A stretch of DNA of 64,000 nt. Source: Chryseobacterium aahli (GTDB taxonomy: Bacteria > Bacteroidota > Bacteroidia > Flavobacteriales > Weeksellaceae). Of this stretch, positions 44,964 to 53,157 are shown piece by piece. The notes beneath the pieces were generated by a model. The model had not been told where the DNA came from and ran no database searches. It was given only the letters and a program-made list of their open reading frames with translations. A program made the translations under genes and the position numbers. Within the stretch, counting starts at the first letter, position 1; the number at the start of each line of letters is the position of its first letter. Location: the NCBI RefSeq assembly GCF_022699665.1, contig NZ_JALDNB010000003.1, positions 124,001-188,000 on the forward strand, read 5' to 3'.

Positions 44964-45079
44964 TACCCAACAGAATCGGGGGGGGGGCACACACGCCCCC
45001 CTCTGATGTGTGTTTATTTTTGAAAAAACCCCCCCCCCCGCCGGGCCCCCCCCCCCCCCCCCCCCGATTCTGTTGGGTA
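44964..45079. other. Poly-G/poly-C hairpin after pafA
   Basis: A perfect 14-bp inverted repeat (TACCCAACAGAATC at 44964 and GATTCTGTTGGGTA at 45066) encloses a run of 10 G's (44978-44987), then 11 C's (45029-45039) and 20 C's (45046-45065). No other such runs exist in the window. It may be the pafA terminator with an extended GC-rich core, or a mis-assembled stretch where reads failed on a strong hairpin. Confidence 0.7.
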
Positions 45080-45132: not shown

Positions 45133-45450
45133 TTACTCAGTTGTTTCATCTTCATCAGAAGCCCCTTCTTCATCGTCATACTGTTCCAGATAATATGCAA
45201 AAGAAAAATCTTCCACATCATCTTCCGTGTCTTCTAAAGTAGTTAGTAAGTCTTCGAAGATTTCTAGCTGATCTACACTCATATTGACAAACTCTAAATG
45301 CAGAGGCATTTGCAGTTCACCAGAAATAACATCTGAAAGTGCGTCGAGATTATCCCCGAAATGAGCGGGAAGTTTAATTTTTTCTTTAAGCTGAGTATAA
45401 AAATCTTCGTAATCTCCGAGGTCTGCGAAGTCGATGTATGTTGTATTCAT
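45133..45450 (-). CDS. Barstar family RNase inhibitor
   Basis: A 105-residue cytoplasmic immunity protein that binds and blocks barnase-type RNases. The binding-helix segment LPAHFGDNLDALSDVISG (about 27-44) aligns with the barstar signature. D36 and D40 match barstar D35 and D39, which plug the RNase active site. Barstar's contact Trp38 is replaced by Ser39. It ends in a long acidic tail. I used the ATG at 45450; an upstream one at 45477 adds nine residues. The cognate barnase gene lies about 500 bp upstream on the same strand, with a GIY-YIG gene in between. Confidence 0.88.
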   Translation of the reverse strand: MNTTYIDFADLGDYEDFYTQLKEKIKLPAHFGDNLDALSDVISGELQMPLHLEFVNMSVDQLEIFEDLLTTLEDTEDDVEDFSFAYYLEQYDDEEGASDEDETTE

Positions 45451-45518
45451 AATTTTATTTAAATTTTTACTGTGCAAATGTATGGGTTTTTATGTCATTG
45501 AAAGACTGTAGTGGTTAC

Positions 45519-45552
45519 TGTCATTGCGAGAAGCGTAGCGACGAAGCAATCT
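45519..45552. repeat. Left inverted repeat of the GIY-YIG cassette
   Basis: A 34-base element begins TGTCATTGCGAGAAGCGTAG and ends GACGAAGCAATCT. Its inverted, near-identical partner is at 45915-45949. It lies 68 bp upstream of the barstar start. Confidence 0.8.
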
Positions 45553-45580
45553 CGCAGCGAATCTTGAGACATCTCTAATT

Positions 45581-45889
45581 TCAGAAACGATCCATAATAT
45601 TTTGAATATCATCCTTCAAATCTCTCCAATCAGAATTTAATGAATTTATTAAATTTAATTTCTTTTGTCTTGAACCTGCTTTTATCTGTTTTTCCCGAAA
45701 GATTGCATCTCCAATTTCCTGAAATGCTTCCCAATATACCAACTTATTAACATTGTATTTTGCACTGAAACTCTGCTCGTGAAACTTTTCTTTATGTTCC
45801 TGAACTCTTTTCGGGAGATTTGAAGTAACACCAGTATAAAGAACGGTATTGTTTTTATTGGTCATGATATAGATAAAGCCGGATTTCAT
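45581..45889 (-). CDS. GIY-YIG nuclease family protein
   Basis: A 102-residue single-domain protein of the small GIY-YIG (UPF0213-like) group. The active-site region reads GFIYIMTNKNNTVLYTGVTS (the GIY and YIG equivalents being FIY and YTG), followed by Lys/Arg-rich helices; a conserved Arg near residue 28 and the Glu in REKQIK (about 67-72) are the usual catalytic neighbours. It could nick DNA. It is enclosed by inverted repeats of 34-35 bp about 25-30 bp beyond each end, and sits inside the barnase/barstar operon. Its host role is unknown; the layout suggests a small mobile element. Confidence 0.85.
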   Translation of the reverse strand: MKSGFIYIMTNKNNTVLYTGVTSNLPKRVQEHKEKFHEQSFSAKYNVNKLVYWEAFQEIGDAIFREKQIKAGSRQKKLNLINSLNSDWRDLKDDIQNIMDRF

Positions 45890-45914
45890 TTGTGTTATTT
45901 TAATATTATTTAAA

Positions 45915-45949
45915 AGATTGCTTCGTCGCTTTCGCTCCTCGCAATGACA
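45915..45949. repeat. Right inverted repeat of the GIY-YIG cassette
   Basis: The plus strand starts AGATTGCTTCGTCGCTTTCG and ends CTCGCAATGACA. It is the inverted partner of 45519-45552, differing by a few bases and one extra base. It ends 2 bp before the barnase stop codon. Confidence 0.8.
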
Positions 45950-45951
45950 GA

Positions 45952-46434
45952 TTACTGCTTCTCAAAGCTCTTATAATGATTTTTAGTTAAATAAACCTCT
46001 CCATTTTTAGTAAAAACAATTCGATCGCCATTTCTGTTTCCACAGCTGTAATTAACATCGGCTTCAAAGTATTTCACCCCTTTCGGCAGCTTTCCTTCTC
46101 GGTTTCCAAAGTAATCTCCACCAATTGCTTTTTCGGGAAGAACTTCACAAAGATTTCCCTGAGAAGGATTCCATCCCGCTTTCTTGGCTTCATTTTTAGT
46201 GATGTAATAATCAGGAAGCTGATGGTTTTGTTTGACGTAATTAATTACTGTATTTTCTTTGGTAAGTTCATCAATTGATTGCCTGTCAGATTGGCTTTTT
46301 GAAGCTTTCGAGGCATTCTCAGTTTTAATGGGCGTTTTCTTCTCAGCAATGAAATTATTATAAATATACATCACCGACATTCCGAAAAGAAGTCCCATGC
46401 ATGCAAAAAGTACAGAACGGATTTTAGAATTCAT
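45952..46434 (-). CDS. Barnase-family ribonuclease, membrane-anchored or secreted
   Basis: A 160-residue guanyl-specific-type RNase. An N-terminal hydrophobic segment (VLFACMGLLFGMSVMYIYN, about 8-26) is a signal anchor or uncleaved signal, followed by a Lys/Ser-rich linker. The RNase domain (about 62-160) aligns along its length with Bacillus barnase: LPDYYITKNEAKKAGW, IGGDYFGNREGKLP and YFEADVNYSCGNRNGDRIVF. The catalytic E73, R83, R87 and H102 correspond to E124, R134, R138 and H153. I used the ATG at 46434; one at 46464 would add ten residues within a repeat region. The barstar gene follows after an inserted GIY-YIG cassette. Confidence 0.9.
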   Translation of the reverse strand: MNSKIRSVLFACMGLLFGMSVMYIYNNFIAEKKTPIKTENASKASKSQSDRQSIDELTKENTVINYVKQNHQLPDYYITKNEAKKAGWNPSQGNLCEVLPEKAIGGDYFGNREGKLPKGVKYFEADVNYSCGNRNGDRIVFTKNGEVYLTKNHYKSFEKQ

Positions 46435-51133: not shown

Positions 51134-51637
51134 ATGACAGATTTTCAAAAATACATTCAAAGATATTTAGATTTAATTCCATCTGAAAACTGGCTGGAAG
51201 AATTGAAAAAATCGGGAGAAAAAACTATTTCTTTATTTTCATTTTTAACTGAAGAGCAATCAAAATTCGCTTATGCAGAAGGAAAATGGACTTTAAAAGA
51301 AGTTTTGCTTCATTTATCAGACACCGAAAGAGTTTTTCAATATAGAATTTTAGCTTTTGCAAGAGGTGAAAAATCTGAATTGCCCGGTTTTGATGAAGAA
51401 AGTTACGCTGCCAATTCTTTTGCGAACGGGAGAAGTTTAGAATCTTTGTTGGAAGAATATCAATTAGTAAGAAATTCTTCTCTGATTTTATTGGAAACAT
51501 TAAATCCGAAAGTTTTAAACAATATTGGAAGTGCGAACGGAAACCAGATTTCTGTGGAAACGATTTGTAAACTGATTGTGGGACATAATATTCATCATTT
51601 GAATGTGGTGGAAGAGAGGTATTTACCGGAATTGTAA
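51134..51637 (+). CDS. DinB family protein
   Basis: A 167-residue four-helix-bundle protein of the DinB/YfiT metalloenzyme superfamily. The metal-binding histidines are likely those in LLHLSDTERVFQYR (about 60) and VGHNIHHLNVVEERY (about 150-164). Family members include thiol-dependent transferases, but this one's function is unknown. Not obviously linked to the neighbours. Confidence 0.85.
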   Translation: MTDFQKYIQRYLDLIPSENWLEELKKSGEKTISLFSFLTEEQSKFAYAEGKWTLKEVLLHLSDTERVFQYRILAFARGEKSELPGFDEESYAANSFANGRSLESLLEEYQLVRNSSLILLETLNPKVLNNIGSANGNQISVETICKLIVGHNIHHLNVVEERYLPEL

Positions 51638-51678
51638 GGTAGAAAGACTATTAATCATATTTTTTTAAAAATATAGTT

Positions 51679-52296
51679 TTGATGAGTAGTAATGTTAAAA
51701 TATCAATACAGTATTTGTTGTTTGTATTTCTGTTTATTGGGATTTCATTTTTCAACGCTTATTTTTTCTGGTGGCGAATTGATAATGGAACAGAAGAATT
51801 TTTTATTATTGTGTCTTCTGTGATGATTTGTTGGATTGGAATAGGTTACTTAAGTACTATGATAAGTGGGAAAATTGTATTTAAAGATCTTAAAGAAGTT
51901 GGTTTTATGTCTCCATTTACATTAGTGTTGAATGGGTTTTTATATGAAAAAAAAGGATTGCAGATAGCTAAGAAATTTAAAACTACATTTTCAGCGTTTG
52001 CATTTCCAATACTCATCTTTTTTATTTTTTTGTTTTACCAAATTGTACATCTTGTAGAAAAAAACGATTTGGCACATTATAGAATTGAAAAACAAGCAAT
52101 AATTGAAGAAATTTCATATTACAAAGGTTCTAAGAGAGGACGTGTGGTTTTTAATTTTGATAAAAAAAAGATTAGAAAAGTAATTTATTTGAAAGATAGT
52201 TTTAAAAACAAAGGCGATTATGAAGCTATAGTTTTTTCTTCAAGAAATCCTTACATAGCTAAAAGTAAAGCAGAATATGAAGAAAATTTAAAATAA
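51679..52296 (+). CDS. Hypothetical membrane protein
   Basis: A 205-residue protein I do not recognise. Hydrophobic segments lie at about residues 9-30, 37-60 and 107-128. A short C-terminal domain (about 133-205) has beta strands (IEEISYYKGSKRGRVVFNFD) and is rich in Lys and Ser. The stop is 3 bp before the tsaC start, so the genes are co-transcribed. Confidence 0.7.
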   Translation: MMSSNVKISIQYLLFVFLFIGISFFNAYFFWWRIDNGTEEFFIIVSSVMICWIGIGYLSTMISGKIVFKDLKEVGFMSPFTLVLNGFLYEKKGLQIAKKFKTTFSAFAFPILIFFIFLFYQIVHLVEKNDLAHYRIEKQAIIEEISYYKGSKRGRVVFNFDKKKIRKVIYLKDSFKNKGDYEAIVFSSRNPYIAKSKAEYEENLK

Positions 52297-52299
52297 TTT

Positions 52300-52848
52300 A
52301 TGGAAAACATCATCAACATATTAAAATCCGGTGGTACGATTCTTTACCCAACAGACACCATCTGGGGAATCGGTTGCGACGCCACAAACATAGACGCCAT
52401 CAATAAAATTTTCGAGATCAAGAAGCGCGAGAAAACTAAATCGATGATTATTTTGGTGGAAAATGAGAAGCGATTACAAGATTTGGTGGACGTTCCGGAA
52501 ATGGCTTGGGAAATTATGGATTTAAGCGAAAAACCTGTAACATTGGTTTATCAGAATCCCAAAGGTTTACCGAAAGAATTGCTTGCAGAAGACGGAAGTA
52601 TTGGAATTCGCCTTGTAAAAGATCTTTACTGCAAAAAACTGATTACAAAACTGAATAAACCTTTAGTTTCAACTTCTGCCAATTTCAGTGGCGATAAAAG
52701 TCCGTTGAAGTTTTCTGATATTTCAAAAGAAATTATTGATTTGGTTGATTTTGCGGTGGAAGAAGACAGAGAAAAAGTGTCACAATATTCAGGCTCTTCA
52801 GTGATCAAAATCTGGAGTGATAACAGAATAAAAGTTTTAAGGGAATAG
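52300..52848 (+). CDS. L-threonylcarbamoyladenylate synthase (Sua5/YrdC/TsaC)
   Basis: A 182-residue cytosolic enzyme that makes threonylcarbamoyl-AMP from threonine, bicarbonate and ATP, the first step of the t6A37 tRNA modification. The family motif GGTILYPTDTIWGIGCDATN is at about 12-31, and STSANFSGDKSP is at about 124-135. The size fits the TsaC/YrdC type without the Sua5 C-terminal extension. It follows a hypothetical membrane gene by 3 bp. Confidence 0.92.
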   Translation: MENIINILKSGGTILYPTDTIWGIGCDATNIDAINKIFEIKKREKTKSMIILVENEKRLQDLVDVPEMAWEIMDLSEKPVTLVYQNPKGLPKELLAEDGSIGIRLVKDLYCKKLITKLNKPLVSTSANFSGDKSPLKFSDISKEIIDLVDFAVEEDREKVSQYSGSSVIKIWSDNRIKVLRE

Positions 52849-53157
52849 TTTTTTGTCTCACAGATTTTCACAGATTTTTAAATCGATATGTTTGTTTTGG
52901 AGCTTTTAAAATTCTTATAAATCCTTAGACAAGCTCAAAATGACATTATTATAAAGATTTTTATTGATCAACATTGTCAGGCTGAGCTTGTCGAAGCCTC
53001 CAGACTTATGTGTTCTTCTTTTTAAACGCATTTTAACTAAAACTCATGTGACTCATGTGTTAAAAATCTTTTGTGACTTTTGTGGTTTAAAAAAATACTT
53101 TTAATGTAAATATTTATCTTTGCAAAATTAATTCATCCAACATCCAGCATCAAAAAA
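52849..53157. other. 309-bp intergenic region with repeat elements
   Basis: No gene seen. It holds an inverted pair of the repeat also found near 22.2 kb: GACAAGCTCAAAATGACA (52928-52945) and, in the opposite sense, TGTCAGGCTGAGCTTGTCGA (from 52975). A second repeat-like stretch (TCATGTGACTCATGTG near 53045, TTTTGTGACTTTTGTGG near 53070) follows. The cca promoter ends the gap. Confidence 0.55.
53115..53122 (+). promoter_or_regulatory. -7 promoter box for cca
   Basis: TATCTTTG matches TAnnTTTG, 35 bp before the ATG at 53158. Confidence 0.55.

What the first reader, a model, noticed from the sequence alone, without database searches (positions are those of the whole stretch)
45133..46434. Barnase/barstar pair split by a GIY-YIG cassette
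A membrane-anchored barnase-type RNase with all four catalytic residues (E124, R134, R138, H153) and a barstar with the two key aspartates (D36, D40) lie on one strand. Between them, in the same orientation, sits a GIY-YIG gene bounded by inverted repeats. The right repeat ends 2 bp from the barnase stop. Taking out the 431-bp cassette would leave about 70 bp between toxin and immunity genes. So an ancestral operon seems to have been interrupted, which could change the toxin/immunity balance or add a third component.
Basis: partly seen in the sequence, partly recalled or inferred. Interest (0 to 1): 0.75.

Follow-up and report, generated by a model that had tools for sequence, protein, structure and literature searches.

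The report
Swappable gene between barnase and barstar
A small DNA-cutting enzyme gene, framed by two copies of a hairpin-forming repeat that is probably its own target, sits between a ribonuclease and its inhibitor, in the very slot where close relatives carry a protease gene instead.

Summary
In detail: barstar (45133-45450), GIY-YIG gene (45581-45889) and barnase (45952-46434) on the minus strand, repeats at 45518-45552 and 45915-45950. The reading is half right. Barnase is in 172 of 173 genomes of the genus; of 150 loci examined, 42 carry GIY-YIG sequence between it and barstar (12 of the 42 broken or partial), so the cassette is not fixed. But the slot is often filled otherwise: an M54-type metalloprotease in 85 of 150, also in the window's nearest sister. 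Outside one clade, protease and cassette are alternatives: 42 and 18 of 96 loci, never both. In one pair of genomes the flanks are 99.7-99.8% identical and only the piece from barnase stop to barstar start differs. Barnase and barstar show no stop in the parts checked, in 150 of 150. The nuclease-repeat pairing recurs over many phyla (inward repeats on both sides in 52 of 80 loci) and the repeat keeps a covarying inner stem. This fits the Ssn/NTS single-strand nucleases, which I recall but could not read here. New variant of a known kind; moderate interest.

The parts
45133..45450 (-). barstar-family inhibitor, 105 aa, D36 and D40 present, acidic C-terminal tail
   Evidence: PF01337 62.9 bits; solved barstar E 5.8e-6; D36/D40 in 150 of 150
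45475..45482 (-). TACATTTG, matches a Bacteroidetes -7 box (TAnnTTTG, consensus recalled) 24 nt upstream of the barstar ATG; possible own promoter
   Evidence: read; such a motif lies within 100 nt of barstar in 27 of 150 loci (4 of 22 nuclease-only, 6 of 65 protease, 17 of 43 neither, 0 of 20 both) against about 6 expected from letter shuffles; no transcription data
45518..45552 (+). one arm, copy of the hairpin repeat (CTGTCATTGCGAG...GACGAAGCAATCT)
45581..45889 (-). GIY-YIG nuclease gene, 102 aa, open frame; Y7, Y18, G20, R28, H32, E66 kept
   Evidence: PF01541 58.6 bits; invariant columns in 8 aligned sequences; median dN/dS about 0.09 among intact copies
45915..45950 (-). inverted second arm, one extra base in the loop, 1 base from the barnase stop codon
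45518..45950 (-). whole cassette: arm - GIY-YIG gene - arm, 433 bp; stands where relatives have an M54-type metalloprotease gene
45952..46434 (-). barnase-family RNase, 160 aa, N-terminal hydrophobic stretch (signal anchor or signal peptide, read by eye), E124, R134, R138, H153
   Evidence: PF00545 55.1 bits; solved barnase E 3e-31; residues in 150 of 150

Best explanation
The window holds one of several alternative forms of a barnase-X-barstar locus. Barnase (probably exported RNase) and barstar (its inhibitor) are the fixed outer genes. X is an M54-type metalloprotease, or a GIY-YIG cassette, or both (one clade), or nothing. The cassette is a nuclease gene between two copies of a hairpin repeat that is probably its own target; the nuclease most likely nicks or cuts these hairpins when they are single-stranded (during DNA uptake or replication), as I recall for the Ssn/NTS nucleases. 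The nuclease gene is not a proliferating transposon: one copy per genome, nearly always at one of two syntenic slots. In this lineage the cassette form stands where the nearest sister has the protease form, most simply through recombination across the conserved barnase and barstar genes between cells carrying different forms. Shown here: the alternatives, one near-perfect swap pair, the nuclease-repeat pairing, the covarying inner stem. Inferred: target recognition, single-strand action, recombination as the route, any effect on the RNase.
For: States in 150 loci: protease 35 scarless + 30 with extra DNA, cassette only 22, both 20, neither 15 + 28 with extra DNA. Outside clade X, 96 loci: protease 42, cassette 18, both 0, neither 36; probability of 0 both if independent 7e-6, relatedness ignored. 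G076 versus G077: 582 of 583 bases equal up to the barnase stop, 299 of 300 from the barstar start, nuclease versus protease between. Nuclease-or-protease scatters on the barnase+barstar tree like shuffled labels (16 changes; shuffled mean 15.8), while each form's own sequence tracks the flanks (outside X: nuclease r 0.81, 18 loci; protease r 0.80, 41 loci). In clade X all 23 protease loci without nuclease have extra DNA, 15 with a recognisable arm core. Nuclease-repeat pairing: both sides inward in 52 of 80 relatives. Inner stem covaries. 54 places in 53 of 173 genomes at E 1e-30: 39 at barnase, 14 between dinB-like and sua5 genes, 1 elsewhere.
Against: No strain series within one species was available, so polymorphism inside a species is inferred. 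The tree is from parts of two short genes by FastTree (an IQ-TREE run failed) and may itself carry recombination. The node joining the barnase-site copies is weak (88/63) and takes in the odd G017 copy; the root of that tree is a very long branch. So repeated insertion is not excluded. The swap pair shows no donor flank tract, which also fits a site-specific event. In clade X TTTTGAAAA stands both at the barnase end and at the protease start behind the cassette, which could be a target duplication. Short paired-repeat elements do occur at unrelated places. Two of the five single-strand folds beat shuffles, but not those of the window's own arms. 12 of 42 nuclease genes at the site are broken or partial. 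The described nuclease family could not be read here, and there are no cleavage data.
Confidence: 0.6

Rival explanations
1. The cassette is a mobile element that inserts on its own by its terminal inverted repeats, and hit an ancestral operon here.
For: Inverted repeats at both ends, open nuclease frame, dispersed solo repeats, two syntenic slots and one odd place. Short paired-repeat elements without a gene: a 164-bp one in G063 and one in G119 share 85% of their inner part over 93 bases while 500-base flanks do not match, so such elements have moved. In clade X TTTTGAAAA recurs on both sides of the cassette.
Against: 54 places in 53 of 173 genomes, i.e. one nuclease copy each bar one genome; no clean target-site duplication seen by eye at the other junctions; cassette divergence tracks the flanking genes (r 0.84); nuclease and protease replace each other, which simple insertion does not give.
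Confidence: 0.2
2. The GIY-YIG gene is a free-standing homing endonuclease: it cuts the form of the locus that lacks it and is copied in by repair, replacing the protease gene.
For: Precise replacement between conserved flanks; weak matches to a group I intron endonuclease model (24.6 bits, cut-off 56) and a homing endonuclease model (17 bits); state scatters on the tree.
Against: The same kind of repeat flanks relatives in many phyla, so the likely target is the repeat, which the scarless protease form mostly lacks; protease forms are commoner (42 against 18 outside clade X), which continuous homing would not be expected to leave.
Confidence: 0.12
3. One ancestor carried barnase - cassette - protease - barstar and lineages lost one or the other; no exchange between cells is needed.
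For: Clade X has both in 20 of 54 loci (two of these proteases are short tails and one nuclease is a remnant); losses are frequent; G118 and some neighbours keep a solo arm after the protease.
Against: In clade X the nuclease-less protease loci all carry extra DNA (23 of 23), yet 35 loci elsewhere are scarless by the length rule, with the protease start overlapping the barnase end in the 30 printed.
Confidence: 0.2
4. The three genes of the window act together: the nuclease is a third component of the RNase-inhibitor system.
For: Same strand, close spacing, purifying selection on the nuclease (median dN/dS about 0.09).
Against: Nuclease absent in 108 of 150 loci and broken or partial in 12 of 42; the same nuclease sits between dinB-like and sua5 genes in 14 genomes.
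Confidence: 0.06

Closest known systems
Ssn site-specific single-stranded GIY-YIG nucleases with NTS repeats (recalled: Chenal et al., Nature Communications 2025; not held in the library, nothing of it seen)
   Same: Small GIY-YIG protein; paired with a dispersed repeat; repeat keeps a hairpin stem; paralogues beside other repeats
   Different: Cleavage, single-strand specificity and effect on transformation untested here; lies inside a barnase-barstar locus as an alternative to a protease gene
Barnase/barstar of Bacillus (PF00545/PF01337)
   Same: All four catalytic RNase residues and the two key inhibitor aspartates
   Different: A variable third gene between the two; N-terminal hydrophobic stretch; inhibitor with an acidic tail; binding untested
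REP/RAYT systems (recalled)
   Same: Single-copy nuclease gene between copies of a dispersed palindromic repeat
   Different: GIY-YIG nuclease instead of a Y1 HUH transposase
Free-standing GIY-YIG homing endonucleases such as phage T4 Seg proteins (recalled)
   Same: Free-standing GIY-YIG gene between conserved genes; neighbouring DNA replaced
   Different: Repeat-flanked in many phyla; no sign of one-way spread

Membership tests
GIY-YIG nuclease superfamily | GIY-YIG catalytic domain above the Pfam cut-off with conserved Tyr, Gly, Arg and Glu | tested here: met
   58.6 bits against 22.6; Y7, Y18, G20, R28, E66 invariant in 8 aligned sequences; which residues are catalytic is recalled
Ssn/NTS (definition recalled) | gene flanked by, and genome dotted with, a cognate repeat | tested here: met
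   own genome 9 repeats, 2 of them the arms; 52 of 80 relatives with inward cores on both sides; other paralogues beside other repeats, exact inverted match of 12 nt or more in 12 of 19 loci against 3 of 114 control windows
Ssn/NTS (definition recalled) | specific cleavage of the repeat as single-stranded DNA | not testable with these tools
   needs an enzyme assay; stem covariation is only indirect
Ssn/NTS (definition recalled) | sequence relation to the characterised Neisseria protein | not tested
   paper not held; no sequence of it was compared
Transposon with terminal inverted repeats | several copies at unrelated sites | tested here: not met
   nuclease gene: 54 places in 53 of 173 genomes, 53 of 54 at two syntenic slots; gene-less paired repeats do occur at unrelated places
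Transposon with terminal inverted repeats | target-site duplication | tested here: inconclusive
   none clear by eye; TTTTGAAAA on both sides in clade X could be one
Barnase | PF00545 with Glu, two Arg and His | tested here: met
Barstar | PF01337 with the two aspartates | tested here: met
Barstar | binds and inhibits its RNase | not testable with these tools
   needs a binding assay

The most novel reading that the evidence does not exclude
The nuclease and its hairpin arms form an exchange module: by cutting single-stranded arms during DNA uptake it steers recombination so that the piece between barnase and barstar is swapped as a unit, and the nuclease form and the protease form have been kept as a long-lived, trans-species balanced polymorphism at an exported-RNase locus.
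Probability: 0.15. Interest if true: 0.8.

Novelty: new variant of a known kind. Interest (0 to 1): 0.5.

Why it matters
It offers a replicated natural experiment on how the gene between two conserved genes is swapped in bacteria, beside a nuclease that carries its own probable hairpin target. It also links an RNase-inhibitor pair to a metalloprotease gene in 85 of 150 loci, which could bear on how such RNases are released. The pairing of this nuclease type with the repeat GTCATTGCGAG...AAGCAATCT in many phyla makes a testable proposal for why that repeat is so common.

Tried and rejected
Recent transposition of the nuclease gene: disfavoured, because copy number is one per genome and cassette divergence tracks its flanks. 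Bare two-gene ancestor: not supported, because the nearest sister and 4 of 17 loci from other genera carry the protease; 11 of those 17 have barstar without a protease hit, and 2 show no barstar in the stretch, so the two-gene form is old too. Simple loss from a both-genes ancestor: disfavoured by the extra DNA in clade X. Thermodynamic folding: the window's two arms and one other repeat were no better than shuffles (z 0.29, 0.77, 1.06); two other repeat families were (z -2.27, -2.25). Pair counts: paired cells, cells changed on both sides and the covariation score beat all 500 shuffles, but the number of pairs changed on both sides (102 of 500) and of pair types (100 of 500) did not. A first, narrower repeat pattern (78 of 173 genomes) was replaced by a wider one because clade X arms differ. 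Outward-facing cores were found near 46 of 80 relatives, so inward arms are not the only arrangement. The barstar promoter motif was found in only 4 of 22 nuclease-only loci. PADLOC gave only weak matches. The IQ-TREE run failed for a thread setting; FastTree was used. Literature: ten word searches of the open library gave no paper linking GIY-YIG proteins to dispersed repeats in what was listed; two searches listed 15 of 309 and 12 of 62. No paper was opened.

Full report
What is there. On the minus strand lie a barnase-type RNase (45952-46434), a GIY-YIG gene (45581-45889) and a barstar (45133-45450); each passes its Pfam cut-off. Two copies of a repeat, CTGTCATTGCGAG...GACGAAGCAATCT, face each other at 45518-45552 and 45915-45950. 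The cassette is 433 bp; one base lies between its right arm and the barnase stop codon; 68 bp of the interval lie outside it.

Where it comes from. The window's assembly has 4.47 Mb in 20 contigs. The genus is Chryseobacterium: contig lengths and positions of G041 and G086 equal those of Chryseobacterium records named. That identification is mine, by matching.

The locus in relatives. Barnase is in 172 of 173 genus genomes. I classified 150 of these 172 loci, the best-scoring ones. Of the 22 left out, seven were looked at apart: protease in G011 (part only), G012, G028 and G163, nuclease in G144 and G026, neither in G041. Barstar follows barnase in all 150; the last 120 codons of barnase and the first 88 of barstar have no stop in any. 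Between them: an M54-type metalloprotease alone 35; the protease plus extra DNA 30; GIY-YIG alone 22; both 20; neither 15; neither but with extra DNA 28. The split by extra DNA is a length threshold. Two of the proteases counted under both are short tails (G078, G153). The protease matches Peptidase_M54 (41.7 bits, cut-off 24.4); of 82 long single-frame copies all keep HE-GH, one has a stop, and 65 have a loose lipobox-like motif. In the 30 protease loci printed a likely TTG start lies inside the last codons of barnase (read by eye). In 17 loci of other genera and three divergent genus members GIY-YIG was found in 0 of 20, the protease in 7 of 20 (4 of the 17) and barstar in 18 of 20. Left arms start about 1 to 17 nt after the barnase stop in 39 of 42 cassette loci; in 3 no left arm was recognised.

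Alternatives, not additions. On a FastTree tree of barnase plus barstar 54 loci form clade X (support 0.96), where the cassette or extra DNA lies before the protease: both 20, protease with extra DNA 23, nuclease only 4, neither 7. Outside it, of 96 loci 42 have the protease, 18 the nuclease, 0 both, 36 neither. The window (G000) and G133 have the nuclease; G118, slightly nearer to the window than G133 in barnase+barstar (0.042 against 0.054), has the protease and a solo arm. The clearest case is G076 against G077: 582 of 583 bases equal up to the barnase stop, 299 of 300 from the barstar start, 618 of 620 after that; only the piece between differs, nuclease in one and protease in the other. 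Which of the two a locus has is random on the tree (16 changes in 60 loci; 1000 shuffles mean 15.8, sd 1.4, 661 at or below 16). Yet the sequences of both track the flanks: nuclease r = 0.81 (18 loci outside X), 0.79 (23 in X), 0.84 (41 together), 0 of 2000 permutations as high; protease r = 0.80 (41), 0.83 (41), 0.87 (82), 0 of 500. Two old forms exchanged between near relatives, or kept together within species, would do this. That is an inference.

How the nuclease gene is lost. In clade X all 23 protease loci without the nuclease carry 50-183 bp between barnase and protease start. In 15 of 23 an 8-base arm core was found allowing one mismatch, a permissive search without control; several are single hairpins that look, by eye, like a fusion of left and right arm at the shared ATTGC. 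So the scarless protease loci elsewhere are probably not products of loss.

The cassette elsewhere. At E 1e-30, GIY-YIG proteins of this type are in 53 of 173 genomes at 54 places: 39 at barnase, 14 between a dinB-like and a sua5 gene 5-10 kb from barnase, 1 elsewhere (G017). G133 has both slots filled, its barnase copy frameshifted. In the window the dinB-sua5 slot holds a 205-aa ORF instead. In a tree of 58 copies the barnase-site copies fall together with weak support (88/63) and with the odd G017 copy among them; the dinB-site copies are not one clade, but the root is a very long branch.

The repeat. A wide pattern finds the repeat in 123 of 173 genus genomes, 9 times in the window's own genome, with 0 for the reversed pattern. 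Arms were collected from cassette loci by a fuzzy match (up to 8 edits): 113 arms, 94 of 33 nt, 52 distinct; 19 of other lengths were dropped, among them one of the window's two arms. On the 52, positions 14-20 are G-C 32, A-T 17, G-T 3 and never unpaired; positions 15-19 have one change on both sides and three unpaired cells; covariation 0.179 against 0.112 (sd 0.010), 0 of 500 shuffles as high; slid controls reach 0.034 at most; two of the five measures do not beat the shuffles. The outer stem hardly varies and, having been used to find the arms, says little.

Beyond the genus. The core GTCATTGCGAG (one mismatch allowed) faces inward on both sides in 52 of 80, on one in 21, on none in 7; outside Chryseobacterium 33, 19 and 7 of 59. 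Control stretches at the start of the longer loci: 0 both, 1 one. Outward-facing cores occur near 46 of 80, so extra copies are common. In 68 arms from 41 of the 59 loci the inner part forms longer stems than shuffles (mean 3.18 against 2.13; 0 of 500 sets as high), with differing stem letters; about half of the arms alone are not exceptional. Other GIY-YIG paralogues of the genus have other repeats beside them: exact inverted matches of 12 nt or more in 12 of 19 loci against 3 of 114 control windows.

How it most likely works. A small nuclease gene between two copies of its probable hairpin target, single copy, under purifying selection (median dN/dS about 0.09 in 121 pairs of intact copies, barnase 0.08 in 71 pairs; 30 of 42 copies intact). 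I recall a 2025 description of GIY-YIG nucleases (Ssn) that cut their repeat (NTS) only as single strand and modulate natural transformation in Neisseria; the paper is not in the library and I could not check it. Natural competence is reported for Riemerella columbina and R. anatipestifer but not found in Flavobacterium johnsoniae (PMC7965970, abstract in the listing); that Riemerella is close to Chryseobacterium is recalled. If the same holds here, the enzyme acts on arms exposed as single strand. For the RNase pair the cassette seems neutral in coding terms; whether barstar expression changes is open. A TAnnTTTG motif (consensus recalled) stands 24 nt before the window's barstar.

Verdict. 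Observation confirmed; the interruption reading is partly supported. It is a new variant of known kinds.

Noticed in passing
window 44964-45079: A 24-nt perfect inverted repeat with runs of 10 G, 11 C and 20 C; in G133 and G118 the same place is a clean terminator-like hairpin, so the homopolymers in the window look like a sequencing or assembly fault at a strong hairpin.
   Followed up: partly
window 51637-52300: Slot between a dinB-like and a sua5 gene: here a 205-aa ORF, in 14 relatives the same GIY-YIG cassette; in G118 the matching gene is split over two frames.
   Followed up: partly
L013 1982-2578 (G118) and 85 of 150 loci: M54-type metalloprotease between barnase and barstar, start overlapping barnase in many; possible processing or release factor of the RNase.
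   Followed up: partly
window 52976-53000: Solo copy of another dispersed repeat (TGTCAGGCTGAGCTTGTCGAAGCCT), like the one beside a different GIY-YIG paralogue in L171 and L176.
   Followed up: no
L186, L187, L199, L203, L204, L212 (G119, G063): Paired inward repeats 151-167 bp long with no gene between. One pair sits at the same place in both genomes with inner parts 100% alike over 85 bases and flanks 85-90%; one pair is 85% alike inside but at unrelated places; one pair is at the same place with unlike inner parts. G063 has 30 repeats but no nuclease of this type at E 0.001.
   Followed up: partly
L002 (G000 C12:278826-279104) and L003 (G000 C10:136587-136850): Two more GIY-YIG paralogues in the window's own genome beside other repeat families; the match in L002 ends in a TAA stop.
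   Followed up: partly
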